From the NCBI GenBank assembly GCA_963556495.2, contig OY747702.1, forward strand, positions 134,001 through 198,000: a DNA stretch of 64,000 nucleotides. The letters are read 5' to 3'. Shown piece after piece: positions 29,245 to 62,636 of the stretch. The notes beneath the pieces are model-generated. The model saw nothing but the letters and a program-made list of their open reading frames with translations. It did not search any database and was not told where the DNA came from. Source of the DNA: Valencia hispanica. Taxonomy: Eukaryota; Chordata; Actinopteri; Cyprinodontiformes; Valenciidae. Every line of letters begins with the position of its first letter. The first letter of the stretch is position 1. The position numbers were made by a program, and so were the translations under genes.

Positions 29245-29247
29245 ATT

Positions 29248-29268
29248 TGGTGTTTCTGCCCGGTTTCG
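29248..29268 (+). promoter_or_regulatory. ERV1 primer-binding site, tRNA-Val type
   Basis: Begins TGGTGTTTCTGCCCGG three bases after the LTR and continues TTTCG. It is complementary to the 3' end of vertebrate tRNA-Val (AAC/CAC) with one mismatch (CCGGGCAGAAACACCA against CCGGGCGGAAACACCA). The tRNA identity is from memory. Confidence 0.75.
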
Positions 29269-29276
29269 GTGGCAGA

Positions 29277-29283
29277 AAGTAAG
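29277..29283 (+). promoter_or_regulatory. candidate splice donor in ERV1 leader
   Basis: AAGTAAGT around 29,277-29,284 matches the vertebrate 5' splice consensus and sits just after the primer-binding site, where class I retroviruses place the donor for the spliced env mRNA. Inferred only. Confidence 0.4.
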
Positions 29284-30017
29284 TATTTAAAAGACATCTG
29301 ACAGTTGCCAGTGGGACAGGAGTAGCTGGTCAGCGAAATAAACACAGTAAGCAGTACCCTTTATATAAAACTGCTATATTGAACATTTCCAAAACATTCC
29401 TGTCTCATATCTAGCCTGAAGTTCCACAATTGAAAAGTATTAATAGGAAAATAGAGAATTTAAGACCAACCTTTGCTTTCCTCTGGAGGTGATCGCTCCA
29501 ACGTTAAGTCCGACGGGACTTAACGTGCAACGGTTGGACCGCAGATCGGGACACAGATCAGACCTGAGAATTGAGGACTCTCAAACCTGATCTTGTGACA
29601 GAAAACGTCGCACCGGAGTCTGGGACTCTAGGTTAGTGAAGCAAAAGGGTTAGGGAAAGTGTAGAATTTAGTAAATGTTAACATTATATGATTAAATAAG
29701 GGGGAAAATACAGGACTGCAGTGTGTGAATGTTGTGAGAAATAAATGGGAGAACAACGAATGGGAGACATTGCAGCCATTTCAAACATTAGGTTTGGACC
29801 AGCACTCGCTGCGATATTAAAGGTCTCCATAGTAGAGGTTGAAGACGGGGAATCTAAAATCCATCCAGACCTGTGATTAGAACAGTCAGTAGGATCCTGC
29901 TTGAATAAATAGTATTCAAGTAGAAGCTTGGATCTTAGGGGCTGGATGAACGCCACTAGGCATTTTCCCTAGAAACAACCTGTTTTTTATAAAAGGTGAA
30001 CGTGATATATTGTTATA
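29284..30017 (+). other. ERV1 leader
   Basis: About 730 bp of untranslated leader between the primer site and the gag start, where packaging signals would lie. No conserved element could be recognised by eye. Confidence 0.5.
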
Positions 30018-31957: not shown

Positions 31958-33646
31958 CAATGCCCACAGAAAAGCCTGAGTGAGAGTGGTACGGGAGACC
32001 CTCTACTCACAATGAAGATTTCTGGACATTCATTACCATTTCTTGTTGACACAGGCGCCACCTACAGCACTGTGGACAAGCAACCTCCACATGCTTAACT
32101 TTCTGGAGAAAAGGTTTCTGTTGGATTTTCTGGGGCTCAGATGTCTCTCCATGTGACTAAACCCTTACCTGTGGAACTGGGAAATCAGCGGGTGGTACAT
32201 CCCTTTGTGGTATCATCAGCTACACCTGCAAACTTGATGGGCAGGGATCTGCTCATTAAACTTGGAGCTACAATCCTGTGTGGTCCTGATGGATTGATTG
32301 TTACCCTTCCCAGTGGACATTCTTTTTTCTGTTCTGGATCTGATGGACAGTTCCTTCTTCAGGATGACACTCCACAGGTGGCTGATATATTTTGGGCCAA
32401 CTTGACCCCTCCCTATGGACCACAGTCTGCTGCATCTTTTCTGTCTGACTGGAAACCATGGTTTCTGAACTTGAATCCTTATGTTCCCCCGCCAGATCCC
32501 CTACATGCCACCCTCCTGTATGAGAGGGGCGATCCTACAATTTATCAGGATCAGTTTGAGAAAACATTAGAAGGTAAAGATTGGACAGTAACTGCCGGTC
32601 CTTGCTATGTGGGACCAGAGGGAGTAGCCTTAGAAGCTAAATTGACTCCTCAACAAGCTCAATTTTACATGATGAGTTCAGAAGCAGTGCCGCATATTTC
32701 TCTTTTGTTACATCCAAAACATCAGGCTAAAGATTTAGGCCCCATGGTGAAAAGAGGGACAGAAACCACTGACTGGGTATTAACTCAAATACCTAGCGTA
32801 TGGTTTTCCTCCTCGACTAGCATATACAAAATTCAGACCACAACATGGGATACTTCTATGTTAGAACATTTACACATGAGCTGTTTCCATGGCAGAGAAA
32901 AAACAGATCACCCAGCAGCTGTTAAAGCGCTACAACAACTCCCTCCCACTCTGTGGTCCTCTGGACCCACTGATGTTGGATTAGTACACACACAACCGTT
33001 GACATTTTCCATGAAAACAGGATCCCCCATTTGGAGATCCCAGTATCCACACAAACCAGAGGCAGAGGAAGGGATTGCAGAGACCATTTTGGGTCTCAAG
33101 GTGGGAGGAGTGTTAGAACCCTCAAACTCAGCGTGGAATACTCCTATTCTTCCCGTTGAGAAACAGGGAACCGGGAAATATCGAATGGCACATGATTTGC
33201 ACGCTATCAACCAGGAATTATTAATAACGCCAATTTCAACTCCTAACCTCTATACTGCTCTGAGTGCATTAACACCAGATTTACAATGGTTCACCTGCAT
33301 TGATCGGCTAATGCCTTTTTCATCTTACCATTAGCACCAAAGGTTAGAGATATTTTTTCATTTACCTTCCGTGGGGAGCAACTTAGATACACTCGCTTAC
33401 CTCAAAGGTTTTGCTCTTTCACCAGGGTTATTCAACCAAGTTTTAAAAGAATCTTTACAAAAATTAACATTACCTCAAGGATGTGTGCTAATTCAGTATG
33501 TAGATGACCTGCTTTTAGCAGCACCAACTGCTGAAGTGTGCAACACAGCAACAATAAAGATTCTCCGCTTGTTAGCCCAAGAAGGTTACAAGGTTTCCAG
33601 GGATAAGTTACAGCTAGTAAGACAAGAAGTACACTTTTTGGGAAGA
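31958..33646 (+). pseudogene. pol: ERV1 protease and reverse transcriptase (first part), broken
   Basis: The protease shows the active site LVDTGATYSTVD (32,045-32,080), then an in-frame TAA at 32,096-32,098, and its C-terminal NLMGRDLLIKLGA. The RT follows: PIWRSQYPHKPEAEEG, GVLEPSNSAWNTPILPV, YRMAHDLHAIN and FTCID (first catalytic Asp, about 33,300). A frameshift lies just after that, another near 33,405, then GFALSPGLFNQVL, the catalytic box QYVDDLLLA (about 33,498-33,525) and VSRDKLQLVRQEVHFLG. The gene is cut at 33,646 by the L2 and resumes at 38,356. Confidence 0.88.
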
Positions 33647-33704
33647 AGCTTTTCTTGGGGTGGTAAGGTCTCGCTAGCTCAGTTAGCTTAGCTTCATTGC
33701 GGCT

Positions 33705-34591
33705 ATGGCTACTCTTCTCTCTCCTGTCTCTAACTCTTCTCTTCTCTCTTGCTCTCTCTGTCAGATTTTTAGTTACTTCCCTGCCTCCTTGAGTGATAAT
33801 GGTAACTGTAATAAATGTAATAGTTTTGTAGCTTTGGAGGCGAGGGTATCAGAATTAGAAGCACGGCTCCGCGCTGATGAAAAACCAGCTGATAGCCGAA
33901 GCCCATTAGCCAGCACGGGGCCAACAAGGATAGAACCTTGTAGCTGTCCTCCGGCAGAGCCCGCGCAGCCGGGACCTCAGGCCGGCTGGGTGACTGTACG
34001 TAGGAAGCATAGTTCTAGGACCCAGCCCCCGGGGCACCACCAACCGGTCCGCACTTCTAACAGATTTTCCCCGCTCAGCGACACACCCGCTGAGAAGCCG
34101 ACCCTGGTAATTGGCAGCTCCATAGTCAGAAAGGTGGCATTAGAGACACCATTGACCATAGTCAAATGCTTGCCAGGGGCCAGAACGGGCGACATCAAAT
34201 CCTACCTGAAACTGCTGGCTAAAGATAAGCGTAAATACAGTAAGATTGTTATTCACGCTGGTGGTAATGACACCCGGTTACGCCAATCGGAGGTCACTAA
34301 AATTAGTGTTGCTTCGGTGTGTAAATTTGCCAAAACAGTGTCCGACTCGGTAATCTTTTCTGGTCCCCTGCCTGATCAGACCAGTGACAACATGTTTAGC
34401 CGCATGCTGTCATTCCATCAATGGTTGTCTGGGCAGTGGTGTCCTGCAAACGATGTGGGCTACATTGATAACTGGCGAACTTTTTGGGGGTAACCTGGTC
34501 TGATCCGGAGAGACGGCATCCATCCCACTTTGGATGGAGCAGCTCTTCTTTCTAGGAATATGGTCAAATTTATTAGTCCTCCAAAACACTG
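33705..34591 (+). pseudogene. L2 ORF1, SGNH-esterase-domain protein, one nonsense codon
   Basis: Starts [20 protein letters not shown]. The N-terminus has paired Cys motifs (CSLCQ, CNKCN), then a coiled coil ([16 protein letters not shown]), a Pro-rich linker, and an SGNH-esterase domain. Block I is [13 protein letters not shown] (nucleophile Ser), block III is [13 protein letters not shown], and block V is [18 protein letters not shown] at 34,491-34,493 splits blocks III and V; the minus-strand copy has a Lys codon there. About 295 codons otherwise. Esterase ORF1s are characteristic of CR1/L2-group LINEs. Confidence 0.85.
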
Positions 34592-34802
34592 ACAACCCAG
34601 GGTCCAGACCAGGAAGCAGAGTCGTAGTTTAACCCACCTCTCTGCTGCTTCTGTACTGTTACCCACACATTACCCTATAGAAACAGTGTCTTGCCCACGG
34701 CCAAAATTAAATGGATTAAAAGTTAAGCCAACAAAAGCAAATCATGGAAATCTCATAAAAATTAATACAACTTTGACTGAACAGAAAAATAAATCTATTA
34801 AA

Positions 34803-37640
34803 TGTGGTTTATTAAACATAAGATCTCTCTCCTCAAAGACTTAGTTAGTAAATGACTTGATTTGTGATAATCACATTGATTTCCTTTGTCTCACAGAAAC
34901 CTGGTTGCAGCAGGAGGATTATGTCAGTATAAATGAGTCAACTCCTTCCAGTCATTTAAATTTTCACATTCCTAGAAATACTGGGCGAGGAGGAGGAGTA
35001 GCAACCATTTTTCGTTCTGATTTACTAATTAGTCCCAGACCAATTGATAGCTACAGTTCTTTTGAACATCTAACCCTTCATTTTCCTTATCCAAGTTGCA
35101 AAACATTAAGACCATTTTTGTTTGTGGTTTTGTATCATCCACGAGGCCCTTACTCTCAATTCTTGGATCAGATCTCACTTTTTTTTAATCTGATTTAGTA
35201 TTAAATACTGATAGGGTTATTATAGTGGGAGACTTTAATATTCATGTGGATACTGAAAGTGATAGCCTAAATGCAGCCTCTAATGCTATTTTAGACTCAA
35301 TTGGCTTTACTAAAAAAGTACAGGGATCGACCCACTCGGGTAAACACACTTTGGACCTTGTACTGACATTCGGTATTGAGTGTGAGGAAATAACAGTCCA
35401 CCCACATAACCCGGTCCTGTCTGACCACTTCTTAATAACTTTTGAATTTACTTTAACTGACCATCTTAAATCTGAAAGAAAATTTCATTATAGTAGAGCT
35501 TTATCAGACAATGCTGTAACAATTTTTAAAGAATCTGTTCCATTCTTACTTTCCTTAGTGTCTCAGGGTAACACAGTGGATGGCAGCAATTCAATCTCTA
35601 ACCCTTCAGAAATTGATGATCTGGTTCACAGCATTACGTCCTCATTGCGTTTGGCATTAGATAGTGTAGCCCCCTTAAAAAAGAAAGTGGCTAGCCATAG
35701 GAGGCTGACTCCTTGGTTCAACGCAGAGTTGCGTACTTTAAAGCAGAATACTAGGAAGTTGGAGAGAAAAATGGCGCTCTACACACCTAGAGGATTCCTA
35801 TTTAACCTGGAATAACAGTCTACTGCTGTATAAAAAGACCCTTCGACAAGCTAGAACAGCATATTTTTCATCATTAATAGAGGCGAATAAAAACAATCCT
35901 AGGTTTCTTTTTAGTACAGTTGCCAAACTTACACAGAGTCATAGCTCTGTTGAGCCAACTATTTCCCCAGCTCTTAGCAGTGATGATTTTATGGGATTCT
36001 TCATAAATAAAAGTCATTCTATTAAAAATAAAATCATTGGCATCCTCCCAAACATGATTACTTCTTCCTCAGTAAATGAGGCAGTATCGGAAAGAATTGT
36101 AAAACCTCAGTTGTGCTTAGGCTGTTTTGATTCAGTCGAGCTTTCAGAATTATCAAAAATATTAGCCTCATCTAAACCTTCAACTTGTATGTTGGACCCA
36201 ATTCCAACCAAATTATTTAAAGAAGTGTTCCCTTTGGTTCCTGGCCCCATTTTGGATAAGATGAATCTATCCGTAGTAAACGGATACGTACCACAGGAAT
36301 TTAAAATAGCTGTAATTAAACCTTTACTCAAGAAACCTTCCCTTGATCAAGATGACTTAGTGAATTACAGACCTATATCTAACCTTCCTTTCTTATCCAA
36401 AGTCCTGGAGAAAATTGTTGCTAATCAAGTCTGTGAGCATCTAAACAGTAACGAGCTGTTTGAAGAGTTTTAGTCAGGTTTTAGAGCTCATCATAGCACT
36501 GAAACAGCACTGGTGAAGGTTACTAATGATATTCTCATGGCCTCAGGTAATGGACTTGTGTCTGTTCTGGTTTTGTTAGATCTCAGTGCTGCTTTTGACA
36601 CAGTCGATCATAATATTCTCTTAGAAAGGCTTGAACATGTTTCAGGGATTAAAGGAACAGCACTAGGCTGGTTTAAATCATATTTGTCTGATAGATTCCA
36701 GTTTGTTCATCTAAATGATAAATCTTCTTCACTCTCAAGGGTTACTTGTGGAGTTCCACAGGGTTCTTTGCTTGGACCAATTCTGTTCACCATATATATG
36801 CTCCCAATTGGTAGAATCATTAGACAGCATGGGATACATTTCCACAGCTATGCAGATGATACACAACTATATTTATCCATAAATCCTGATGAACCCAGTC
36901 AGTTAGGTACATTACAGGCATGTCTGGAAGACATGAAAATATGGATGACCCTAAACTTTTTGCTTTTAAATTCTGACAAGACAGAAGTTGCTGTCTTTGT
37001 TATTAAATTGCCCCCCAGTAATAACGTAAAGAACCTCGGCGTTATTTTTGACCGAGACTTGACATTTAAATCCCACATCAAACAGGTTTCTAGGATTTCT
37101 TTCTTTCACCTCCGGAATATTGCTAAAATTAGAAACATCCTGTCCAGGAGTGATGCTGAGAAACTAGTCCATGCATTTGTTACTTCAAGGCTGGACTACT
37201 GTAATTCTTTACTATCAGGTAGTCCACAAAATGCCATTAAAAGCCTTCAGTTGATCCACAATGCGGCAGCAAGGGTTCTGATGAATATTAAAAAGAGAGA
37301 TCACATTTCTCCTGTTTTAGCTTTCCTTCATTGGCTCCCTGGTAAATCCAGAATAGAATTTAAGATCCTTCTTCTTACATACAAAGCCCTTAATAATGAA
37401 GCTCCATCATACATCAGAGATCTAATTGTTCCATATGTTCCTAACAGAGCCCTTTGCTCTCAGACTGCAGGTTTACTTGTAGTTCCTAGGATTTCTAATA
37501 GTAGAATGGGAGGCAGATCTTTTAGTTATCAGGCTCCTCTCCTGTGGAACCAGCTCCCAGCTTTATTCCGTGAGGCAGACACTCTGTTTACTTTTAAGGC
37601 CAGGTTTAAAACTTTACTTTTTGATAAAGCTTATAGTTAG
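34803..37640 (+). pseudogene. L2 ORF2, endonuclease-reverse transcriptase, several lesions
   Basis: Endonuclease: [40 protein letters not shown] and [80 protein letters not shown] and SDKTEVAVF, with a C-terminal LINE domain ending FKTLLFDKAYS at 37,640. Lesions: a TAG near 34,843, a frameshift near 35,200, a frameshift near 35,790, a TAG replacing Gln near 36,471, and an in-frame deletion of about 23 codons near 37,000 relative to the other copy. Catalytic residues of both domains are otherwise present. Confidence 0.88.
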
Positions 37641-38355
37641 AGTTGCTAAGGTCATCCTTAGCTATCTCTGTTATGCTGCTATAGGCTTAGACTGCTGGAG
37701 GACAGACTTACCAATTTTTTTCACTCTGCTACTTCCTTTTCTCCTACGACTCTCCAGTTGTATTACAGTACATTCTGTTATTTCGACTGTTAACTTTGTT
37801 TTCTCTCAGTGTTTTTCTCTCCATACAAGATATACCTGGTCTGGTATCCTGCTTGGCTGCAATGCCCTGTTGGACGGGGGGCATCGACTGGGATTATCCT
37901 CCCAGTAACTGAACATCCACTGTGTCCTGTTATCAACTTTTTACTTTATGTAACATAGAGAGTACTCTTATATCAGATCTTCTGTTCCTTCTGTGTCTCT
38001 GCTCTGTCTTCTCAAACCCCCAGATGGTCGTGGCAGATGGCCGCTCCTACTGAGCCTGGTTCTGTTGGAGGTTTCTTCCTGTTAAAGGGGAGTTTTTCCT
38101 CTCCACCTTCGCTACATGCTTGCTCAGTATGAGGGATTGCTGAAGGATTGCTGTGGTTGGAAAGTCTGCATCAACGGGGCCCAACCTCACGCCAATGACT
38201 GACGCAATCTGCTGGGATTCCTTAAATAGGAAACTTTTTAACCGATTGGAATGTTTGTATAAATGCACTGAAATGACTTCTTGTTAAGTGCCTTGAGATG
38301 ACATCTGTTGTGAATTGGCGCTATATAAATGAACTGAATTGATTTGAATTGAAGA

Positions 38356-38867
38356 GTTACTGCACAAGGATCAGGTCTAACAGCAGCTCACAGATCTGCA
38401 ATCCTACAACATCCAAAACCGTTAAAGGTTAAAGAAATGCTGTCCTTTTTAGGACTAACCAACTTTAGCCGTCACTACATGCCCAGCTGCACTAATCTGA
38501 CCACTCCATTGCGTGCGTTGATAAATGAACATGGTACGAAACAATTTAATGCTCCTCTTAATTGGACGGTGGCAGCAGAAGAAGCGTTTAATGTTCTAAA
38601 ACAGGAACTGGCACCAGCAGCAGACTTGGCTCTGGCTGATTACAGACTAGAATTTTTTCTAGACTCCTCAGAGACTGATGGAATAATCAATGGTGTCCTG
38701 TTTCAAAAGGTAGATGGACATAGACACATTTTGATGTATCTTAGTGTGAAACTAGATACAACAGAAAATAGACACCCACCATGCACCCGGCATGCAGCTG
38801 GACTAGCCCATCTCATCTCTAAAACAGCACACATTTTTCGCGGGCATCCTCTCAGGGTGTTAACTAC
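38356..38867 (+). pseudogene. pol: ERV1 RT thumb/connection region
   Basis: Continuation of ERV1 pol after the L2: VKEMLSFLGLTNFSRHYMP, TTPLRALINEHG, AAEEAFNVLKQELA, LADYRLEFFLDSSETDG and PPCTRHAAGLAHLISK. It is cut at 38,867 by ERV2 and resumes at 46,629. ERV2 carries the same region at 41.1-41.7 kb, which confirms the alignment. Confidence 0.85.
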
Positions 38868-39437
38868 TGTCGGCTTTTCTCACAATGTGCTCTGCAACTC
38901 ACTTCCTGCTCAGAGAGGTGGGGGCGCCGAATTCCAAAAACCCCAGCGGAATCTGTTTCAAAATAAGACCCAAAGCTGAGAGACAGAGAGTTACAAAAAA
39001 ACACACAAACTCAGATCTGTTTTGGAAAAGACGCACCTGCAGATGGGAATCAGACAAGATCCGACTGACTGACTCATTCTCTTACAGGGCTGTACCATTT
39101 TTATTTCAAGAAGAACAAAGAACATATCACGTGACTCCTCTCTCCTCCTTCTACATCTTAACAGGTCATTTATTTTCTCCAGGTCTCTTGACCTTACTAT
39201 GAACTGGGTTATAACATGACTTAGAGTTATAGCTGATCCTCCCTGCTTTCAGTTCATATCTTTACTCAAGAGTTTGTTTACTTAAAACCTTCAACCCTAT
39301 AAAATACTGGTAACAGAGTCATGTTTTACTACCCTGAATAATATAAACAGGCCTATTACTTCTAAAGCTTAAAAAAGATATAATTAACACATATGTACTG
39401 CATAATAAAAATAGCCTCAAAAAAGTAGAATACAACA
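38868..39437 (-). repeat. ERV2 3' LTR
   Basis: 570 bp; plus-strand ends TGTCGGC and TACAACA, i.e. TGTTGTA to GCCGACA in the sense direction. One base differs from 46,055-46,624. Confidence 0.95.
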
Positions 39438-39450
39438 AATCCCTCTTTCA
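39438..39450 (-). promoter_or_regulatory. ERV2 polypurine tract
   Basis: On the minus strand AAAGAGGGATT directly precedes the 3' LTR. ERV1 has the matching AAGAGGGATTAT before its own 3' LTR, a sign of close relationship. Confidence 0.75.
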
Positions 39451-39493
39451 ATCTATTTTTCAAATAGATTGATCACTCCTCTGTACTTCCCCA

Positions 39494-39721
39494 TCAGGCT
39501 CCATGTGAGCTATTAACAGATATTGACTTTGCACATTTATCACCAACAGCTTTTTCAATACACTTTGTGAGCAAAGAACGTATACAAGGAATACAACAAC
39601 ATCCACATAACACCATAGTTGACACAAATACTGCTAAAGAAACCATTATAGACATTGCCAGAGTCTTCCATTTACCAAACATATTATTTAACAAATTTGT
39701 CCCTCTTTCCAACCTGATCAT
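39494..39721 (-). pseudogene. env: ERV2 env C-terminal fragment (membrane anchor and tail)
   Basis: Contains the membrane-proximal FGKWKTLAMSIMVSLAVFV, the anchor continuing TMVLCGCCCIPCIRSL, and a short cytoplasmic tail. The Cys-rich end resembles the degraded ERV3 env (CCVIPCIRGL) and that of ERV1 (CCVIPCFKVM). The ectodomain, fusion peptide and SU are absent. It sits just upstream of the polypurine tract, as expected. Confidence 0.8.
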
Positions 39722-40772
39722 TCAAAATGAGAAGAGTGTCTGTTTTTTTATCCTTACCTTTAAGCAATATATTTTTTTTAAATTTATTATTATTGTTTTT
39801 TATGTTTTAACCTAATTCCCAATATTCTTTTAGTAAAAGCAAACTCTAGCAATTGTCACCAACCCTAAAAACATCCTACAAAAACCACATCATAATGAAA
39901 AAAGAATAAGTAAAACAAAAATTAGTAGTCAGTCAACCTGATTATACTTTAAACACTCCTTAAAATGTTTTATCTTATTACTAAAAAAGTTTTATAAAAC
40001 CGTAAATACTAAATATTAAGAAAAAATCTTACAAATAGACTACTTAAAAATTATTTGACACCCTCTTAGGCAGTGTCTAGCAATCTGCACCTGTAAATAA
40101 AAATCGGTTAGACAACCTGTAAAATACAAGAAAAATGATTAGTAAGTGTTCAGTCTTTATTATTTTGTTCTCTAGTCTTCGCTCTTGTTTATTTCTCTGG
40201 CAGCAGGTGGCTACCAGAGTGATGAAATGATTCAGTACAGTGGACTCTTTATTTTTCCCAATGTTACTGTCTTTTATGCAGATCGCCCTCACTGAAATGA
40301 CAGTTACTTCATTAACTGAACATTTCCCCCAGTAAACACAAATGCACAGACAGGCCCCGCCTCCAATAGCTTCCCCCACCGATTGTGAGGTGGTCAAAAC
40401 CTGCTGTGAAATGTGTTTGATTTCTTGCGATCTTTTCTCTTCGGTATAATCCCTCTTCGAGAAAAGCAAGTCCAAATTGCTTATCTCGCCCAATTTTGTT
40501 GCACATATAGATTACACTGGATGATTACAGCAACTTCAACCAATCTTCTGGGTGGGTCTGGCCCCGCCTCCTGGCTTCGGCAGTCGACACCGCCTAGTCA
40601 GAACCGACACCACCCGCTGCAAAGAGATTCTCCCAGGTCAGCAGAGAGCTGCTGCAGCGTGAGGGACAGGAGAGGGGTCGGAAGGAAGAAGGAGACCAGG
40701 CCCTTCAGATGCTGATGATCACTGCGAGGGTCCGGGTGCGATGAAACCTGAGGTTCTCTGCCAGCTGTAAAT
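39722..40772 (-). other. ERV2 internal segment without recognised genes
   Basis: Where integrase and the first part of env should be. One minus-strand ORF of about 138 codons (40,077-40,493) has no retroviral motif, and no GPY or DDE integrase motif is present. Probably deletion scars plus captured sequence. Confidence 0.4.
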
Positions 40773-41200
40773 TTAAAGTTGAATTAGACCGCTCGATGAC
40801 GCCCTATTTCCCCACGCGTCAACAGTGTCAGCCTTGCTTTGACCCCAATAGCAGTAACAAAACTGCTCTCCTCCACTGTGGTAATTCATAATGTATAACA
40901 GAAAACCCGTAATTCGAATCAGTGTAAATCGTGACGTCTTTATCTCTTCTCCATTTGCATGCTCAATAAGAGCCCTTATCTCAGCACGCTGTGCGCTCTG
41001 CTTGCCGTCCAGCTTCCCTGACACGACAGTATGTAGTGAATCTCCATTCTGCTCAACAACTGCAAAACCTGATTTTAACTGGCCCTGTCCATCTCTAAAA
41101 ACAACACCCATCTGTATAGAGCACAAAACCTGTAGATAAGGTATCAGACCGTAAATCAGAACGTATTTTTTGAGCAACAGAATTCAGCCTGACACAGTCA
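40773..41200 (-). pseudogene. pol: ERV2 RNase H domain
   Basis: VLYTDGCCF (first catalytic Asp) is followed after a frame change by FRDGQGQLKSGFAVVE, and SAQRAEIRALIEHANG supplies the catalytic Glu. The third motif (Thr-Asp-Ser) is present near 40,920 but in another frame. It would degrade the RNA strand during reverse transcription. The gene fades out before integrase. Confidence 0.8.
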
Positions 41201-42661
41201 TGCTGTTCCCCAGAGGCGGTGATTTGTTCAGCCATGTTTATTCCTTCATGCGTAAAAATAATGTTTGGTGCCTCCAAAACTCTGCTAATCCGCTGCTGAC
41301 GCAAAGTAACAATGTGTGAAGTTTTCTCCACTAGGTGTGCAATTCCTGCTGCATGTCTCGTGCAAGGCGGCTGTCTCATTTCAATAGCTTGCAGCTTTAT
41401 GCTAAGATACATAAGAATGTATCTCTGACCACCTTTTTTCTGAAACAAAATCCCATTAACCACCCCATCTGTTTCTGATGTGTTAAGAAAAAATGGACAT
41501 GTATAGTCAGGAGTGGCTAAATCAGCTGCTTGTGCTAGAGCCTGTTTCAACTTACTAAATGCCTCCTCAGCTGGTATGTCCCATTCTAACTTAGCATGCA
41601 GATTTTTCATACCATGAGCATTTACAAGAGCCCTGAGTGGTGTGGTAAGGTTTGTGTAATTAGGCACATAATGTCTGGAAAAATTTGTCAGTCCCAGAAA
41701 TGACAGCATTGATTTAACAGTGAGGTTTAGAATGGGCCAAAATAGCATTCTTGTGGGTGTCCGTCAGCCCAGCGCCTTGAGCGGTCACCCTTCGCCCCAG
41801 GAACTGGACTTCCTGCCTGACCAACGGAAGCTTATCGCGGGAGACTTTAAATCCCTCTTTTCCCAAATGTTGCAACACAACTAGAGTCGCTGCCATGCAC
41901 TTTTCAACGGTGGGGGATGCTAAAAGTAAATCGTCCACATATTGGGTCAGTACACAGTCTGGAGGGAGCTGTACAGTGCTTAATGACTGCTCTAACACCT
42001 GATTAAAAATACCTGGGGATAAAGCAAAACCCTGCGGAAGCCTACTATAACGTAGCTTCCTGCCCCTGAATGTAAATGAAAAAATATCCCTGACAGAAGG
42101 ATGGAGCGGTAAACAGAAAAATGCATTAGCCAAATCTATGCAGGTAAACCATTTTAAATCAGGAGTCAGTGATGCCAGAGCTGTATACGGATTTGGTGTA
42201 GAAATGGGAGGGGTTCTAAGGGCCTCATTAATAGCACGCAAATCATGTGCCATTCTGTATTTACCAGTACCTTGTTTTTCCACAGGAAGAATAGGGGTGT
42301 TATATGAAGAGTTTGATGGTTCTAAAACTCCAGCTTCAAGTAAGCCTGCAATAGTGTCTGCAATACCTTCCTCAGCCTGAGGTTTATGTGGGTACTGAGA
42401 ACGCCAGATTGGATCAGAATGTTTCATGTCAAATGTGATGGGTGTGGTTTGCACTAGACCAACATCAGTGGGACCATCTGACCACAAAGAGTCAGGCACG
42501 ACCTTTAAGGCCTCCACTGCATCAGGATGATCTGTTTTTTCTCTGCCATGATTTCTAGAAAGCTGCAAATGTTCCAGAATGGTAGTATCAGAGAGCTGCG
42601 TGTCTATTTTGTACATCTGAGTAGAAGGAGAAAAAGAGACTGAAGGTGGGTGTGAACCCAA
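41095..42661 (-). pseudogene. pol: ERV2 reverse transcriptase
   Basis: Two overlapping open frames cover most of the RT. The first (42,661-41,714) has GVLEPSNSSYNTPILPV, FTCIDLANAFFCLPLHP (first catalytic Asp), LPQGFALSPGIFNQVLE, QYVDDLLLASP (second and third Asp) and QEVQFLGRRVTAQG. After a frame change near 41,740 comes the thumb/connection with MLSFLGLTNFSRHYVPN and PCTRHAAGIAHLVEK. All polymerase catalytic residues are present, unlike ERV1 where the palm is frameshifted. Confidence 0.88.
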
Positions 42662-43424
42662 TCCTTTAATTCAACTCCCCTTTTAACCATTCCCCCCAAA
42701 TCTTTAGCTTGATGTTTCGGATGCAACAAAAGTGATATGTGTGGAAGTGCTTCAGCTCCCATCATATACCATTTAAGCTGTTTTGAAGTGAGATGAGCAA
42801 ACAGTGCAATACCCTTCCTCCCCATAAAGCATGGACCCGAAGCCACAGACCAACTTTGGCCTTCAAGTTCTGTTTCAAATTGTTCCTGACATAAAGTAGG
42901 ATCGCCCTTCTCATAAAGGAAGGTCACATGGAAAGGATCAGGCAGTGGAACAAAAGGCTGGAGTTCAAGCAGCCAAGGCTTCCAGCATCTCAGAAAGTCA
43001 GCCGCAGAAGATTCATGTGCAGACATCGTAGTCAATCTGGCCCAGAAAATATCAGCCACTTGTGAAGTGTCATCCTTCAGCAAAAATTGACCACTCATGG
43101 TGTCACAGCAATGCGTATGTCCATTCGGAAAAGTCACCATAAGTCCATCAGGGGTACATAGAATAGTAGCACCAGTTTGATAAGCAGATCTCTGCCTAAC
43201 AAATTGACAGGCGTCTTTTGAGCAATGACAAAAGGATGTGATAGTCTTTGATCACCCACTGAAACAGGCAATGGTTGAGTTATAGGGAGAGTCATTGGAG
43301 CCATATGTAGAGGTGGCTGACCGGGAGGTATAGCGCCCCCTTGTGGGTGTGGGCACTCCCTCACCCAGTGTTCATTGGAGCCACACCTGTGACAACCGTT
43401 AGCACCCGGCTGCCCTCTCCCCAT
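42604..43424 (-). pseudogene. ERV2 nucleocapsid end fused to late protease and linker
   Basis: Starts near GRGQPGANG, then an intact zinc knuckle CHRCGSNEHWVREC. About 20 codons later it is already in the region corresponding to the second half of the protease (PVSVGDQRLSHPFV, NLLGRDLLIK). The gag stop and the DTG active site present in ERV1 are missing, i.e. an in-frame internal deletion. A frameshift follows near 43,150. The linker then reads SQVADIFWARL, HVTFLYEKGDPT and LPHISLLLHPKHQAKDLGG. Confidence 0.82.
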
Positions 43425-43578
43425 GCCTCTAAAATCCCCAAACCTGGCCCTGCCACGTGACCTGCCACGAGGCTACCATGTCCTATAAGGAGGAGTAAAT
43501 GGCTTATTCGGCGCAGCTCCAGCATACATCACAGGAAAAGAAGGCAGCACTGTCGCTGATCCAACAGTAGGTGCTGCT

Positions 43579-43995
43579 TCAGCCACCATCTGTATCACTT
43601 TTTTTAGACTGATACAAGTCAGTCAATTTATTCTGAGCCTCTTTTAACTGTAGTTTTAACAAAGCAGTCTCCATTTTCTTATTCTCCTCAGCGTCCTTTA
43701 ACGCAGATGCTCTCACTAAAGGAAGCATTAAATCAGGGCCTCCACTCGCCCCCAGTGACACCTGAGATCTGGTATTCTTAAATGGTCCTTCACTCCCCTT
43801 GTCTCCCAACGTCTGCATATTTTTGACCTGTAAAACTGTCGTACATTCATCACGTTGACTGGGGCTGGGACCTCTTGAAAGGTCTGTAGCTTGACCCCTT
43901 ACCACAGATGCCAAAAAAAAAAAAAAATTTATCGGTGCCTTCTAATTTGTTGCTAACTAAATTTAGTAGGTGTCACTTTTCCTCCCCAGAACACA
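43579..43995 (-). pseudogene. gag: ERV2 gag fragment (capsid end, coiled coil)
   Basis: The coiled-coil part KKMETALLKLQLKEAQNKL is homologous to ERV1 gag near 31,500. Upstream are ASVVRGQATDLSRG and, beyond a T15-type homopolymer on the sense strand, LNLVSNKLEGTDK with a TGA just before. The homopolymer and stop break the frame. The rest of gag (matrix, most of capsid) is not detectable. Confidence 0.65.
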
Positions 43996-46033
43996 TTCTG
44001 TGAGAGACTTCTCTTATACTCCCCTCGGGCACCATGACGAGCCCCCCTGGCCGTCATAAGGCCCTGGAACTGGTTTTTATCTTCTTTTTATTTTTTACCG
44101 GGCTTATCAACTAAAACAGAATATAATTTAGAAATGTATATTAACAATTGGGCATCTAAAGTACGTCAGTTTCGTCCCTGTGGAGCAGGAAGTAACCTAT
44201 ATTTAGCTGCCATTGAATATTCGTAACAAAAATCCCAAATGGATTAAAATTAAAAAAAAGAAAATAGGTTATTTGTATTAACTCTATAAATTATTTATTT
44301 TAATTGATAAACTATCAATTCGTAGGCCCAAATTTATCCCAATATTAATGCAGTAAACAGTAAAGGCAGGCACCGTTTTTATTTAATCTATTTATTTCTT
44401 TTTATAGTGAAGGAGTTTATATATTATTTATTCATGCAACATTAACCTTAATAATGTTTTAGGCAAAGCCGAAACGAAGGAAAGCTAAAAAGGTTTATAA
44501 CGCACTGTTTATCTTATCATTAATTTATTTATATACGGAGATTATTGCCGTTTCATCTAAAAATCAAAGAATTCCTAATAGAGTCCGGCCTGCGCCAAAA
44601 CTCGGGATGCACTTTTTGGTGAAACACACGAAAAAATAGAATTCTCCCAATATAAGGCAATTTGTATTTATCATTAAAACATATACTGAAAGAAATACGT
44701 TTAAAACTCGCTTTGCAACACGAAAACGTCAACAGTTTGCTCCAAAAAAAAAAAAACTCCGCCGGACTGACCGATCAAAGTCCGGCCCAATAAAACTTCT
44801 GTGTCACACCGCGGAATGAATACGCCGGTGCACAGATGGCTAATTCTGCACTACGATGCTAAACCGTACTCATAAGTAAACCAACCAAGAACAAAATGCC
44901 TCCAACAAAACCACACTTTGCCATCAATACTCGAATGACTGTTTAACCGAGCCAAATAAATACAGTTCGGAAGCTAAGCTACCAAAGATTAGCTGTCATC
45001 ATGAGCAACCTAGCTCAACCGGAAGCCAAACGTGACCGCTCCGTTATCATAAAAAGTTATTTTATATATATTCTATAGAGTTTACTACCAGTTATCCATA
45101 ATAACAGTCCTATATATATGTGTTAGACAATGCTTTAGACGTGTTTACGTAGTTGCACAAGGTTGAACGCCTTTATTTCCAGGCGAAAAACTCATCCAAA
45201 CTGTGTGTTAGCCGTAAGCTAACTTATGGTGGTACTTTAGCTGACTGAAAATGATATTCCCTTATTCCTCTACAATGTCAAGCTTCTACGCTTATTGTCT
45301 GTACAAGAAGCGCGGACATTGTCTAGGCGTTTAAGATTCGCAGAGGAATTATGGTTTTAGATTCAGTCGGTTAGTTCCCCTAAATGAGAAGTTTATATGC
45401 GGCCGGAATTCAAGAAGCTAAATGGTAGCTTCCTTCCGTCACCGCGACTTCCCCAATCACACACACATTCATCCGAGAGAAAGAAAGAACAACAATTTTC
45501 ACAGTCTCATCAAACACTAACCTCTACCGGAGCCACCTAAAGCCGGACCTTTAAACACAATCCAATTCACGTGGCTCAATCGTGCGTTTGGAAGATACGC
45601 CAGCCTCTCCAAGGTAATCCGTCTAGACAACAGAGAACACATAGGCTCTGCTGCCGTCTCTTTTCTCGCTTGCCAGCCGAGGAGAATTTTCCGATAGCGT
45701 CCCATCGGAAGTGAGCGGCCAACTCTCAAGCCCCCTGGTCCGTACTTTGGTCGACCCTCAACCGAAAAAACAACACGTCAACATTAAATGGAGAACGTTT
45801 AAATCGATCAATACCTATTAATTTGGTGTTAGCGCTTTTTCAGATTGATACAAAACCACCCGGGTGTTGATTAGCAAGGATCAATCCAGTCGCTCTCCGA
45901 TTCTCTGTTGAACTCAAAGAAAAAACACAAAATCACTACAATTGCCACAAACACCTGTATCAATCAGTTATGCCACACTCATTACTCACACTCAATCTCT
46001 CCCAGCCCTGAGAAAACTCAAAACCAAATCAAA
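43996..46033 (-). other. ERV2 5' region without recognised gag
   Basis: About 2 kb between the primer site and the gag remnant, AT-rich on average, with no motif that I can assign. It should hold the leader and gag N-terminus but seems to have been replaced or eroded. Confidence 0.4.
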
Positions 46034-46051
46034 TGCCCGCATCCTCCACCA
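46034..46051 (-). promoter_or_regulatory. ERV2 primer-binding site, tRNA not identified
   Basis: On the minus strand, three bases after the 5' LTR, TGGTGGAGGATGCGGGCA begins with the obligatory TGG. The same three-base spacing occurs in ERV1 and ERV4. I could not match it to a tRNA 3' end from memory. Confidence 0.5.
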
Positions 46052-46054
46052 TAT

Positions 46055-46624
46055 TGTCGGCTTTTCTCACAATGTGCTCTGCAACTCACTTCCTGCTCAG
46101 AGAGGTGGGGGCGCCGAACTCCAAAAACCCCAGCGGAATCTGTTTCAAAATAAGACCCAAAGCTGAGAGACAGAGAGTTACAAAAAAACACACAAACTCA
46201 GATCTGTTTTGGAAAAGACGCACCTGCAGATGGGAATCAGACAAGATCCGACTGACTGACTCATTCTCTTACAGGGCTGTACCATTTTTATTTCAAGAAG
46301 AACAAAGAACATATCACGTGACTCCTCTCTCCTCCTTCTACATCTTAACAGGTCATTTATTTTCTCCAGGTCTCTTGACCTTACTATGAACTGGGTTATA
46401 ACATGACTTAGAGTTATAGCTGATCCTCCCTGCTTTCAGTTCATATCTTTACTCAAGAGTTTGTTTACTTAAAACCTTCAACCCTATAAAATACTGGTAA
46501 CAGAGTCATGTTTTACTACCCTGAATAATATAAACAGGCCTATTACTTCTAAAGCTTAAAAAAGATATAATTAACACATATGTACTGCATAATAAAAATA
46601 GCCTCAAAAAAGTAGAATACAACA
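46055..46624 (-). repeat. ERV2 5' LTR
   Basis: 570 bp, identical to 38,868-39,437 except for one base. Its sense strand starts at 46,624. Followed on the right by the CTAC duplication and resumed ERV1 pol. Confidence 0.95.
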
Positions 46625-46628
46625 CTAC

Positions 46629-46757
46629 ACACGGGGTAATGGCATTCGTTAATTCTGAGGCATTTACCATGTCCACACTCAGACAACAGCGCATGAGCAA
46701 AATCTTGGAAGCACCTAATTTCACATTTGTTCAAGAGGGTATCAGCAGGCTCATGAT
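46629..46757 (+). pseudogene. pol: ERV1 pol tether, RNase H domain missing
   Basis: Continues ERV1 pol after ERV2: MSTLRQQRMSKILEAPN, then FVQEGISRL. The equivalent region in ERV2 leads into a full RNase H domain, but here only about 65 codons separate it from the integrase zinc-binding domain. The roughly 130-residue RNase H has therefore been deleted. Confidence 0.75.
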
Positions 46758-47953
46758 TTGATGATGACAATGGTAGCAGAAGATACTGAAAACATGGAGG
46801 ATTTTATTAAAACTGAACAAAACAATGCTGCGCCTCAAGAAAAATCTGTTTGGCTACAAAGGGGAGTAGTCCAATCTCATGGACTCTGGCGTAGCCCAGA
46901 TGGACGTCCAGTGTTACCTTCGAACATGAAATCTGAGATTTTCCAAGAAGCACATGGCTTGGCCCATGTAGGTGCCGCTCAGATGAAAAAAAATATATGT
47001 TTTTGGTGGCACCCTTACATGACAGATTGGATAAAACATTTTTTACATGAATGCAAAGTGTGTGGTGAATTTAATCCTAAACCCACCATTAAACCTGAAA
47101 TTTGGTCCTTTAAAGAACTATCACGTCCTGGTGAAGAAGTTGTCATTGATTACACTGATATGGGAATACCGGTGAATAGCTACAAGTACCTTCTGGTTCT
47201 GACTGATCCACTGACAGGCTGGCCAGAAGCCTGGCCATCCAAGCGTGAGGATAGTGAAACTGTTGTTAAGTGCTTGATTAATTATTACATTCCCTGGCAC
47301 TGTTTTCCTCGAACTGTGAGAAGTGATTCAGGAACACATTTTAAAAATCAGCATCTTCAGTTTGTACAAAAACAGCTGGGATTAACCCAGAAATTTGGGA
47401 CTGTGTATCATCCACAGTCTCAGGGGTCAGTGGAAAGAATGAACCAGAATCTTAAAACCAAAATAGCTAAAATAATGGCACAAACAGGAGTGACGTGGGT
47501 GGATGCCCTTCCTATAGCACTTATGGCTGTCAGGTCATCAGTCTGTAGGACTAAAGGACTTACACCTTGTGAGTTACTGACTGGCAGGGTATTTAACGGA
47601 CCGTTTGCACAACTTCGAACTGTGACTGACCCAACCCCTCAGAACCCATCCTCTGACTATCACATCTTAAAACTTTGGTAAAATCTTTCACAACAGCTAC
47701 TTCTGCAGTACAGGGCCCAGCTCCACTCCCCAGTGAAGCTGCCTGGGTGTGGTTGAAAGTCATTAAAAGGAAGTGCCATGAACCCAGGTGGACGGGTCCC
47801 TACCAAGTTACTGCCAGGACCACTCATGCTGTTCAACTGAAGGGGAAGGGCAGGACCTGGTATCATTGGAATCAGTGTTCTCCTGCATCTGAACCACAAC
47901 GGTCCCTTGCGGAAGTAAGGGAGGCCCTGAAGAGGACAACAGAGGGAGAGTAA
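46758..47953 (+). pseudogene. pol: ERV1 integrase, one frameshift
   Basis: The N-terminal HHCC zinc domain is intact: AHGLAHVG (His-x3-His, about 46,944-46,970) and HECKVCGEF (Cys-x2-Cys, about 47,050). The core keeps all three acidic residues: EVVIDYTDMG, TVRSDSGTHF and GSVERMNQNL. The frame ends at 47,681. The C-terminal GPY/F domain (AWVWLKVIKRK, RWTGPYQVTART) is in another frame, starting about 47,675 and ending at 47,953. It joins viral DNA to the host chromosome in active relatives. Confidence 0.9.
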
Positions 47954-48567
47954 AAGTTCTTAGGTGCTATCGAGCCCGGCTTTTATTCTCTGAAGAAAGT
48001 CTGTCAGGGAGGAGTGATCAGGGGTTAGATCACTCCTAAAGAGGGTAAGGGGTACTTAATTCTTAAGCCTGAAAAACATTTTTTAAAAAACATATACATT
48101 TTATAAAGGCTGGTTAAGTATTCCCTGAAGATCAAAAGAAAAGAGAAGAAAAGAGTTTCTGCAGCACCCTCGAGCCAGTGGAGGACAGTAAACAGAAACT
48201 GAAGAGCATCTTCACATTTTATATTTTATCTTATTTACGTCTTATCATTTATATTATATTTTAGCTTAGCTTGATTTTATCTACAAACCTTTTAAAGATT
48301 TTGTTATTTGTATTTTTTTACAATCACTATTTTAGAAAAAAAAAAAAAAAAAAAAACGGCAGCATCATGATGTGGGAATAAGCAGGCTGAGAAAAAGTTA
48401 CATTTTCCTAGGGCCAGAACAGAGTATTACCAGTTTTGCTAAAATAATAAGAAGGACCGCTGCCTTTAGGCTTATTTAATTTTAATGCTCATATTTTTTA
48501 TCATTTACATTCTATTTAAAAAAAAAATTTAAAGCTTACGTTTTTGTGCAAATTATACAGATTGAAA
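47954..48567 (+). other. ERV1 pol-env intergenic segment
   Basis: About 600 bp without a gene, AT-rich, containing a run of 21 A (48,336-48,356). It probably includes the env splice acceptor. Class I viruses usually overlap pol and env, so this gap is unusual. Confidence 0.5.
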
Positions 48568-50134
48568 ATGTTTAGCTACAGGAGGTTGGGAAGAAATCCC
48601 CTAACTGATCCTTTTTGGGGTAATTGGACGGTTTTAAGCTGCGCGGTTGTTGTACTATTATTAATATTGAATGTTATATTGTTTCTGAATTGCGACTGGC
48701 CCTACAGACATGCAGCTTACTGCCAAAACACAGACAACCGCCTGCGTCCTAACAGCTCGATAAATTCCAAAAACCACTCAGATATCCGGATAATACAACA
48801 TGGCAAAAGATGGGTATCAGACCCTCATTTAGGCGTTAAAGATGAAGACCCTCTGCATGGATACCATCTTAATCAGTGGTATAACTATGTGGAGATTCTT
48901 GCAAGATCGAAGAATTATTCTAACTGCTATGTGTGCTCGATCATGCCAAAGAGCTCCTTTCAACCCGTATTGGATCCATTCCCATTGTCATTTAGGAGTT
49001 CTTTTTGTGTATTAAAGACTGATCTGAAGCGCTATGGCCGTCATCAGATTAACTGGAACAACTGTACTTTAGTGTCCTACTTGTGTCCTCAAAATTTCAT
49101 GGCGTATAAACTCCTTAGTGCTCTTGAACCACTCGCAACGTTTCCACAATCTTTTCTGGGGGTTGCACATTTAAAATCCTCTATGACTTTTCCAGCTTGT
49201 TTTCATAGCAACGGGACAAGGAATCTAAGACGATTGTCTCCGTTTAGATGCCAAAAATTGTACACCCCTAAAAAGTGTGTCCATAGTAGTTACATTATAA
49301 GTCAAACCTTAGATCAAAATGAGACCTGTCCGTGTAAAATTAGTTCTTTGTATTCTACTAGTACTCCCCCCGTAGAACATTATTCGTTTGTAAACTGGGA
49401 TAATGCAGCGTTACCTGGGAAAAAGGGCACAAAACCAGTAGATGACATATATTGGCTCTGCGGACACAAGGTATATGTGTATTTGCCTGAAAATTGGGGT
49501 GGAGTATGCGCGCCAGTAGTTTTAACTGACCACACGTTCATAATTACCACAAAACAGAAAACTGATTCGGATAAAAATGAAAGTAGGAATAAACGGTCTC
49601 TAAGCAAAATAGAAGTTCAAAAGCATGTAAGTTTGGGGTAGTGATGTCCCAGATGACCATAAATTATGGACCACAGCTAAGTTATTCATGAATGCCTCAA
49701 TTAGTGCATGGGAATCCAACAATAAAGAGATGAAAGCCATAAGGTTGATGTTACTTCAAAATAGGATGGTGTTAGATTTCTGGACGGCAGCCCAAGGTGG
49801 AATTTGTGTACTCCTTAATGAGACATGCTGCAGCTACATCCCGGATAATTCTGGAGATGGAAACGACATAGATAATGCTCTCTCTAAAATGCGCACAGTA
49901 GCCAAAGCCCAAAATGCAGACTTTGTAAATGCAGATACTCAACAATGGATGAATTGGTTGTTTTTTGGAGGATGGATGTCCTTACTCTGGAAGGTTGTGG
50001 CTTTCCTAGGAATTTTGAAGTTAATATTTTTCCTGCTGACATGTTGCGTAATACCGTGTTTTAAAGTTATGGTAAAGAAAATGATCTCACAAACACCACT
50101 TAGAGGACAACACATGTTAGTTCCTATAAAATAA
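48568..50134 (+). pseudogene. env: ERV1 envelope glycoprotein, one frameshift
   Basis: Mediates receptor binding and fusion in active relatives. ATG at 48,568; a cytoplasmic-like N-terminus precedes a long hydrophobic leader (VLSCAVVVLLLILNVILFL). The SU has several N-glycosylation sequons, a CxxC motif (NCYVCS) and LPENWGGVCAPV near its end. A furin-type site RNKR sits in NESRNKRSLSK. The frame ends at 49,641, and the TM subunit resumes one frame over at about 49,640. The TM has an LQNRMVLDFW-type immunosuppressive-like segment, CVLLNETCC (the CX6CC motif of gamma-type env), a membrane anchor around LGILKLIFFLLTCCVI and a short tail ending at 50,134. Two open segments of about 355 and 148 codons, the best-preserved env here. 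Confidence 0.88.
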
Positions 50135-50189
50135 ATGGAACAGGTGGAATTACAGGAGTAAGAGTAATAGTAGATTCACCTCTAAAATA

Positions 50190-50210
50190 TTAGAGGTGAA
50201 GAGGGATTAT
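50190..50210 (+). promoter_or_regulatory. ERV1 polypurine tract
   Basis: TTAGAGGTGAAGAGGGATTA lies directly before the 3' LTR; the AAGAGGGATT core matches that of ERV2. Confidence 0.7.
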
Positions 50211-50858
50211 TGTAAATAAAAACTTTTAAACAAGCATTGAATGAATACACAGGCCAAAAGGTGAAGGGGTTATGTGCTAAAATAATTAACTAAATGCAGA
50301 AAAGTGTTGTCACAGGATGTGACCCACGGGTCAGAAAGGAACGGTCACGATTAAATGGACAAAACTGTTAAGAACAGGATATGAGTTAGACAATGGGTCA
50401 CGATTCTCTGAAAAAAAACGGAAACATCTGTTGGTTTGGTCGTGCAAAATAGGCTGTTGAGAGAAGGAAGGTTTTCTGCTTAGCAACCAAAAGGAATATA
50501 TTAACAGGGGCTTAACCTATTAGGGACGGACTACAGGCACACTTTGCATCTATATGAATATGTATTATTAGGCTGATTGGATCCTGTAAGAGAGGCTGTC
50601 TCTCAGAATGTTTTGTAATAACTTTGTAAAGAAATAAAAGGCATTTATGAGGAAGAGTTCTTTGAAGATGATTTTGGTGAGGATCTCTTCCCATGCATGC
50701 CCAAAAAATATATATTGTGTGAATGTGTAATTCTTTTTTATACTCTGCCACAGGATAAACGAACTGGGAGAGATGAGTTAGCAGACAGCAGGCTGGTCAG
50801 GGACTGGTAGCATAGCAGCGCGAGACGCAGGCTTTCACTTAAAAGTCTCCTCTCATCA
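50211..50858 (+). repeat. ERV1 3' LTR
   Basis: 648 bp from TGTAAATAAAAAC to CTCTCATCA. It has a polyadenylation signal AATAAA (GAAATAAAAGGC, about 50,631) that the 5' copy lacks through a ~14-bp deletion. Confidence 0.92.
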
Positions 50859-62633: not shown

Positions 62634-62636
62634 AAT

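What the first reader, a model, noticed from the sequence alone, without database searches (positions are those of the whole stretch)
38868..46624. ERV2 has almost identical LTRs but a coding-dead body
The 570-bp LTRs differ by one base and the CTAC target duplication is perfect, so the insertion is very recent. Yet integrase, most of env, most of gag and the protease active site are gone. A provirus lacking integrase cannot have moved itself, so it was presumably mobilised in trans as a defective, expanding subfamily. It may still be polymorphic in the population.
Basis: partly seen in the sequence, partly recalled or inferred. Interest (0 to 1): 0.75.

Follow-up and report, generated by a model that had tools for sequence, protein, structure and literature searches.

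The report
Gutted retrovirus copying via helper family
A fish genome carries hundreds of copies of a retrovirus that has lost the gene needed to insert itself, alongside a close relative that still has it, so the broken form very probably spreads by borrowing its relative's proteins.

Summary
In detail: 570-bp LTRs differ at one base, the CTAC duplication is perfect, and integrase, capsid, the protease active site and most of env are missing.

The 23-base junction left by the integrase deletion occurs at 307 places. Of 14 other LTR-paired copies, 14 share the integrase-to-env side; of 12 further copies, 12 share the gag side. LTR pairs differ by 0-4 of ~569 bases; 12 of 14 have perfect 4-bp duplications. 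RT drifts nearly neutrally among copies.

A partner family shares LTR type, tRNA-Ala primer site, leader and RT (96-98.5%). It keeps integrase: 62 of 129 listed matches, 20 in frames of 1355-1360 codons. ERV2 is that family cut by at least eight deletions: a defective subfamily very probably mobilised in trans, like bovine D-type ERVK. Which helper acted is inferred.

A CpG-rich 1.8-kb segment that I first took for captured host DNA belongs to the family's own leader.

The parts
46055..46624 (-). 5' LTR (TG...CA, 570 bp)
   Evidence: genome copies
38868..39437 (-). 3' LTR (570 bp, 1 mismatch to 5' LTR)
38864..38867 (.). target-site duplication CTAC, left copy
   Evidence: gene context
46625..46628 (.). 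target-site duplication CTAC, right copy
46034..46051 (-). 18-nt primer-binding site, complementary to the tRNA-Ala 3' end (tRNA identity recalled)
   Evidence: the 18 nt identical in 12 of 14 copies, one difference in 2; in partner 5' ends 3 of 4 identical, 1 with one difference
45863..46033 (-). 5' leader after the PBS
   Evidence: 97.9-99.5% in 4 of 4 partner 5' ends
44074..45862 (-). CpG-rich non-coding part of the long 5' leader (CpG o/e 1.12 over 44020-45870)
   Evidence: in 40 of 40 scored places, ERV2 among them; in 4 of 4 partner 5' ends as far as those pieces reach
43301..44073 (-). gag remnant including the NC zinc knuckle; missing segments of 501, 95 and 561 nt relative to partner (the stretch near 43920-43989 aligns at only 77%)
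   Evidence: same structure in 12 of 12 other copies
43173..43301 (-). C-terminal protease remnant; active-site half absent
   Evidence: (weak)
41717..42670 (-). open RT piece (318 aa, RVT_1)
   Evidence: 96.0-98.5% nt to 5 partner RT pieces; near-neutral among copies
41098..41763 (-). connection / RNase H-like domain, with a 75-nt deletion at 41308/41309 relative to partner
   Evidence: 5 of 5 partner pieces
40806..41183 (-). truncated RNase H, 85 nt missing near 40845
   Evidence: (weak)
40805..40806 (-). junction of the 724-nt deletion that removes most of integrase
   Evidence: 3 of 3 partner pieces; 307 genome places
39722..40805 (-). partner sequence from the end of integrase towards env, with further 145- and 196-nt deletions; no gene recognised
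39494..39721 (-). env TM C-terminal remnant
   Evidence: 30% to ERV1 TM, E 4e-4; 91.5-97.7% nt in the 5 of 8 partner pieces that cover it
39440..39449 (-). polypurine tract next to the 3' LTR
   Evidence: the 22 nt next to the 3' LTR, which hold it, identical in 14 of 14 copies
28608..50858 (+). older ERV1 provirus holding ERV2 (and a LINE at about 33647-38342)

Best explanation
ERV2 is one copy of a young, non-autonomous subfamily of a class-I-like fish ERV. An autonomous-looking family in the same genome (ERV2-like LTR, tRNA-Ala primer site, long CpG-rich leader, gag and env regions, a pol frame of up to 1360 codons with integrase) gave rise to a form with at least eight internal deletions. 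These removed capsid, the protease active site, integrase and most of env but kept the cis-acting parts: LTRs, primer site, leader, polypurine tract. RNA of that form is very probably packaged, copied and integrated by proteins of the autonomous family. It is now at about 300 places, one of them inside an older ERV here. Shown: shared deletions, separate 4-bp target duplications, young LTR pairs, near-neutral drift of RT in the defective form, constraint on RT in the partner, mosaic haplotypes. Inferred: packaging and integration in trans, and that this partner is the helper.
For: Same deletions: 14 of 14 other LTR-paired copies are contiguous at 96.7-98.2% from 39438 to at least 41213, where the fetched pieces end; 12 of 12 further copies are contiguous over 43200-44130 (one from 43204) at 97.9-98.9%; 40 of 40 scored matches to 39722-40800, out of 699 candidates and with ERV2 among them, run to the query end from base 1 or 3; the junction 23-mer (at most 1 mismatch) is at 307 places, reversed control 0.

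Separate recent insertions: LTR pairs of the 14 differ by 0 (5 copies), 1 (6) or 3-4 (3) substitutions; 12 of 14 have perfect 4-bp duplications, with 10 different sequences among the 12; mates are joint nearest for 28 of 30 LTRs.

Loss of coding constraint: 37 distinct RT changes among copies, 14 synonymous, 20 nonsynonymous, 3 stop, against a neutral 9.5/25.7/1.7. Five partner copies give 38/24/0 against 18.3/41.4/2.3, 0 of 4000 shuffles.

Partner: 62 of 129 listed integrase matches are 59-60% to ERV1 integrase, 60 of the 62 without stops, 20 in frames of 1355-1360 aa (my count); 8 of 8 sampled carry an ERV2-like LTR; leader 97.9-99.5% (4 of 4) and RT 96.0-98.5% (5 of 5); 8 discrete deletions mapped, none GT-AG.

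Co-packaging: pairwise distances in three segments are uncorrelated, i.e. mosaic copies.

Precedent: bovine C/D ERVK, PMC10924933 (abstract and passages seen).
Against: No transposition event was observed and no expression was tested. RT changes in the defective form lean slightly to synonymous (fraction of shuffles reaching the observed value 0.07), so some constraint, perhaps inherited with parental sequence, is not excluded. The five partner RT pieces came from copies picked for long open frames, so their lack of stops is partly by choice. Two of 14 copies lack a matching 4-bp duplication, and 10 of the 40 LTR rows stayed unpaired and were not examined. The frame change near 41.72 kb is in only 1 of 12 other copies, so part of the damage is later than the founding form. 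Partner LTRs are 82.6-96% like ERV2's, so the sampled partner copies are not all the immediate parent. Deletion edges in protease were not covered by the partner pieces and those in env came out inconsistent.
Confidence: 0.9

Rival explanations
1. The defective subfamily is mobilised in trans, but mainly by another ERV of the genome (for example the ERV1 group or the 68-73% group) or by an exogenous relative, not by the LTR-sharing partner.
For: Other integrase-bearing groups exist in the same genome: by my count 58 ERV1-like and 9 intermediate rows of 129. ERV1 pol is related to ERV2 pol (56-73% aa over the pieces).
Against: Leader, primer site and RT are shared with the partner at 96-99.5%, the TM-PPT side at 91.5-97.7%. 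ERV1's LTR does not match ERV2's and, by recall, its primer site is tRNA-Val-like. Of 8 sampled rows of the 68-73% group (9 in all) 7 show no ERV2 LTR and 1 a partial one that lies beside a partner copy.
Confidence: 0.08
2. An old decayed provirus whose LTRs were made alike by gene conversion.
For: With only one copy in view the lesion count alone could not exclude this: at ERV1's age a few frame changes would be expected (my estimate).
Against: Fifteen proviruses at separate sites would all need the same treatment. Their LTR pairs differ by 0-4 bases, while different copies differ by 0.35-3.0% in the 3' LTR, and the deletions are shared.
Confidence: 0.02
3. A one-off defective insertion: the deletions arose in the same reverse-transcription round that made this copy.
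For: Microhomology of 3-6 nt at the three IN-side deletions fits template jumping.
Against: The IN-env side is the same in 14 of 14 copies, the gag side in 12 of 12 others, and the IN junction is at 307 places.
Confidence: 0.01
4. Assembly error or sequencing noise explains the dead body.
For: Three of the six frame changes lie at homopolymer runs of 5 or more.
Against: Large deletions recur identically at many loci on different contigs. Partner copies in the same assembly keep open frames of 1355-1360 codons.
Confidence: 0.01

Closest known systems
Bovine ERVK[2-1-LTR] D-type / C-type pair (PMC10924933; abstract and passages seen)
   Same: A defective form without functional genes shares LTR and ends with a competent form in the same genome; most new copies are defective; copies recombine; trans-complementation is the proposed route.
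   Different: The bovine D-type swaps its central part for an old retroelement piece; here the body is the partner's own sequence with at least eight deletions. ERVK is class II (recalled); this is class-I-like with 4-bp duplications, in a fish. Mobilisation was observed in cattle, not here.
Mouse VL30 (PMC4859993; passages seen)
   Same: Non-autonomous LTR element without open gag or pol; 42 of 86 full-length copies with identical LTRs; thought to be mobilised by a related retrovirus.
   Different: The passages name no parent family in the genome that is nearly identical in pol; here the partner RT is 96-98.5% identical.
ETn/MusD and IAP I-delta-1 of mouse, RecKoRV/KoRV-A of koala (named in PMC10924933 passages; rest recalled)
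   Same: Defective morphs complemented by competent morphs of the same clade.
   Different: Different retrovirus classes and deletion architecture (recalled).
Epsilon-like class I ERVs of teleosts such as ZFERV (PMC4977317: abstract and section 7 seen; PMC8672886: passages seen)
   Same: Young class I-type ERVs in ray-finned fish; many copies with identical LTRs (248 of 890 in zebrafish).
   Different: The parts seen describe no defective/helper pair. No genus was assigned here.

Membership tests
Non-autonomous (trans-mobilised) ERV subfamily | Multiple insertions sharing the same gene-destroying deletions | tested here: met
   14 of 14 (IN-env side), 12 of 12 others (gag side), 40 of 40 scored, 307 junction places
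Non-autonomous (trans-mobilised) ERV subfamily | Cis-acting parts kept: LTR ends, PBS, PPT, target duplication | tested here: met
   PPT side 14 of 14 identical, 18-nt PBS 12 of 14 identical, 4-bp duplication 12 of 14
Non-autonomous (trans-mobilised) ERV subfamily | Remaining coding sequence evolves without constraint within the subfamily | tested here: met
   14 S/20 N/3 stop against 9.5/25.7/1.7 neutral, fraction of shuffles 0.07; small sample, 11 of 14 copies cover the whole piece
Non-autonomous (trans-mobilised) ERV subfamily | A candidate helper with the missing integrase and matching cis signals in the same genome | tested here: met
Non-autonomous (trans-mobilised) ERV subfamily | Mobilisation depends on helper proteins | not testable with these tools
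Class I (gamma/epsilon-type) ERV | RT closest to gammaretroviral RT | tested here: met
   the ten best solved structures by sequence are of the Moloney-type RT group, E 2e-51 to 7.5e-49, the next group 9e-35 (genus labels partly recalled)
Class I (gamma/epsilon-type) ERV | 4-bp target duplication (rule recalled) | tested here: met
   12 of 14 copies
Class I (gamma/epsilon-type) ERV | Gamma-type env | tested here: inconclusive
   ERV2 keeps only the TM end, no Pfam match; related ERV1 TM matches TLV_coat, E 4.4e-10; partner env not scanned
Epsilonretrovirus genus | Phylogenetic placement with WDSV/ZFERV-type viruses | not tested
   no tree made
LARD / TRIM elements | No recognisable retroviral coding sequence (definition recalled) | tested here: not met
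   RT, connection domain and zinc knuckle recognisable

The most novel reading that the evidence does not exclude
A fish 'virus of a virus': a gutted ERV morph that keeps only replication signals and a 2-kb CpG-rich leader and outcompetes its own parent for the parent's particles. It acts as the parasite-of-parasite drive proposed for cattle, with the CpG-rich leader as the cis-acting advantage (packaging or escape from silencing). A second-level morph about 0.77 kb shorter, missing most of RT (two copies, 6.42 kb), shows the stripping is still going on.
Probability: 0.2. Interest if true: 0.7.

Novelty: new member of a known kind. Interest (0 to 1): 0.5.

Why it matters
It gives a teleost counterpart to the mammalian competent/defective ERV pairs, with about 300 defective copies and a partner whose RT looks constrained in one chromosome-scale genome. 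That makes an open question testable outside mammals: do defective morphs drive the collapse of their parent family, and which cis parts give them the advantage? It also shows how a single puzzling provirus can be resolved by searching for shared deletion junctions.

Tried and rejected
Captured host DNA: the gag-side segment has CpG o/e 1.12 (44020-45870), and 0 of 1169 other windows of that size reach it; two of six promoter-type motif counts were also high. I took it for a captured host CpG island. Rejected: the partner family carries it in 4 of 4 sampled 5' ends. The 'fillers' are partner sequence with deletions. Whether the family's ancestor once captured it is open.

Wrong: 1 of the 12 copies that cover the place has it too.

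ERV1 as the helper: rejected as the likeliest, because its LTR does not match although it has an integrase frame.

Splicing as source of the deletions: none of the 8 mapped deletions is GT-AG.

Led nowhere: viral-contig scan with the RT piece, no match; public protein search with ERV1 gag, none at E <= 0.001; Rfam, none at gathering score. Public protein search with ERV2 RT gave a best hit of 62%, so no near copy of that piece was found there. Eight paper searches listed no paper whose title or abstract start describes such a defective/helper pair in fish; only listings were seen, except for four papers seen in part (PMC10924933, PMC4977317, PMC4859993, PMC8672886).

Not obtained: a genome-wide count of the uncut (partner) version of the IN-side junction, so no defective-to-competent ratio is given. 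The 62 partner integrase rows are a lower bound (125 of 4156 candidates scored).
Full report
What was claimed.

The LTRs are 38868-39437 and 46055-46624, 570 bp with one mismatch, and the CTAC duplication is perfect. The element is on the - strand. Its 18-nt primer site at 46034-46051 matches the 3' end of tRNA-Ala (tRNA identity recalled). It interrupts the pol gene of an older + strand ERV whose LTRs differ by K2P 0.030: left and right flanks, searched apart, align to adjacent residues of relatives P0016 and P0083. With the fish rate 1.46e-8 quoted in PMC8672886 (passage seen), one difference corresponds to about 60,000 years (Poisson range from very recent to about 0.33 Myr), and ERV1 to about 1 Myr (my arithmetic).

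What is left of the genes. Pieces were searched apart. RT (41717-42670, RVT_1 E 2.7e-26), the connection domain and a zinc knuckle remain, with a weak match to the C-terminal third of protease. Gag keeps a 30-residue match and the NC region; env keeps the TM end. No integrase match was found (best E 0.65). The pol pieces change frame at six places and contain one stop near 43.47 kb (my reading); three of the six places hold a homopolymer run of 5 or more. Against ERV1, pol shows dN/dS about 0.08 with dS saturated, so pol was long functional before it was lost. The host looks like a spiny-rayed teleost near killifishes: the best public matches to a LINE in the window are Nothobranchius furzeri at 80%; the species was not identified.

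Shared deletions. The own genome is 1.29 Gb in 29 contigs. The LTR search scored 40 of 1806 candidates; all 40 were at least 98% identical. Two rows are ERV2 itself, 28 form the 14 pairs I examined, most about 7.2 kb apart, and 10 stayed unpaired and were not examined. LTR mates of the 14 differ by 0 (5), 1 (6), 3 (1) or 4 (2) substitutions; 12 of 14 have a perfect 4-bp duplication, 10 different sequences among the 12; the 22 bases next to the 3' LTR (polypurine tract side) are identical in 14 of 14; the 18-base primer site is identical in 12 of 14. In 14 of 14, sequence from the 3' LTR through the integrase-deletion junction to at least 41213 is contiguous at 96.7-98.2%, and the leader side 45560-46054 at 94.8-99.4%. 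Of 12 other copies chosen, 12 are contiguous over 43200-44130 (one from 43204). The search with 39722-40800 scored 40 of 699 candidates; 40 of 40, ERV2 included, run to the end of the query from base 1 or 3. The 23-base IN-deletion junction occurs at 307 places, ERV2 included, with at most one mismatch, reversed control 0.

The partner. Searching ERV1's integrase piece gave 129 matches from 4156 candidates, 125 scored. By my count of the rows, 62 are 59-60% identical, 9 are 68-73%, 58 are ERV1-like. Of the 62, 60 have no stop in the match and 20 lie in open frames of 1355-1360 aa. Pieces downstream of integrase from 8 of the 62 all carry an ERV2-like LTR (82.6-96%); of 8 from the 68-73% group 7 do not and 1 has a partial hit that lies beside a partner copy; of 4 from the ERV1 group 3 carry the ERV1 LTR. 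Partner RT is 96.0-98.5% identical to ERV2 (5 of 5 copies), leader 97.9-99.5% and the CpG-rich segment, as far as the pieces reach, 91.8-96.8% (4 of 4). Aligned to partner pieces, ERV2 lacks segments of 724, 145 and 196 nt from integrase towards env (3 of 3 pieces), 85 and 75 nt in RNase H and connection (5 of 5), and 561, 95 and 501 nt in gag and leader (2 of 2); microhomology of 3-6 nt occurs at the three IN-side ones (chance of 3 or more: 0.07 each) and 0-1 nt at the other five; none fits GT-AG. The protease deletion was not covered; env-side edges came out inconsistent between pieces.

Selection. Among the defective copies RT shows 14 synonymous, 20 nonsynonymous and 3 stop changes against a neutral 9.5/25.7/1.7 (11 of 14 copies cover the piece fully; the synonymous excess is reached by 0.07 of shuffles). 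Among five partner copies it shows 38/24/0 against 18.3/41.4/2.3, reached by 0 of 4000 shuffles; these five were chosen for long open frames, so the absence of stops is partly by choice, the synonymous excess less so. The same sequence thus looks constrained in the partner and close to free in the defective form. Two copies of 6.42 kb match only about the first 187 bases of the RT piece and resume near 41712, so a form missing most of RT has moved too.

Recombination. In the 303-bp CpG-rich piece copies fall into distinct haplotypes with mean difference 4.4%, against 1.4% in the 3' LTR. Pair distances in CpG-rich piece, LTR and env-side stretch are uncorrelated (Spearman -0.12, 0.03, -0.12). 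Mosaic copies are what two RNAs per particle produce.

Mechanism. Shown: one deletion-bearing form inserted many times, recently, with the short duplications that integrase leaves, alongside an integrase-bearing partner with the same cis signals. Inferred: the partner's particles package, copy and integrate it. The nearest known case is the bovine ERVK C/D pair, where defective copies dominate new insertions while competent copies set the rate (PMC10924933, abstract and passages).

What I got wrong on the way. The CpG-rich segment looked like captured host DNA; the partner carries it, so it belongs to the family's own leader. Why this leader is so CpG-rich remains unexplained. A note of mine calls one frame change private to ERV2; one other copy shares it.

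Limits. No expression, no other individuals, no ratio of cut to uncut junctions (requests unanswered), no phylogenetic placement by genus.

Noticed in passing
window 55054-63085: A third LTR pair (451 bp, 4 differences) with a 5-bp duplication TCCAT (my reading) and a 7.1-kb body; of 9 body ORFs scanned none reaches a Pfam cut-off. A second young, apparently gene-less LTR element on the - strand; primer site looks like tRNA-Trp (recalled).
   Followed up: partly
window 44074-45862 and partner 5' ends: The long leader of this ERV family keeps CpG o/e about 1.1 while ERV2's pol and LTRs are near 0.35; the reason is unknown.
   Followed up: partly
genome C8:57.78 Mb and C1:59.28 Mb: Two copies of 6.42 kb lack most of the RT piece: a second-level deletion form.
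   Followed up: partly
window 28608-50858: ERV1 holds ERV2 and a LINE; its pol appears to jump from the connection domain to integrase, so its RNase H may be missing (my reading).
   Followed up: no
genome C3:122590-128061, left of the window: Another copy of the defective family lies about 6-11 kb left of the window.
   Followed up: no
genome C3:2.51-2.53 Mb: A copy with identical LTRs 19.2 kb apart and a perfect duplication: apparently about 12 kb inserted after a very recent integration, or an assembly effect.
   Followed up: no
genome C24:9.45 Mb and C1:59.28 Mb: These two copies have the same 4-bp duplication CTGG and similar six-base flanks; chance, a shared repeat target or something else was not looked into.
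   Followed up: no
window 3-7471 and 33647-38342: Two LINE copies in opposite orientation, 94-96% alike, with RT 80% like Nothobranchius furzeri LINEs.
   Followed up: partly
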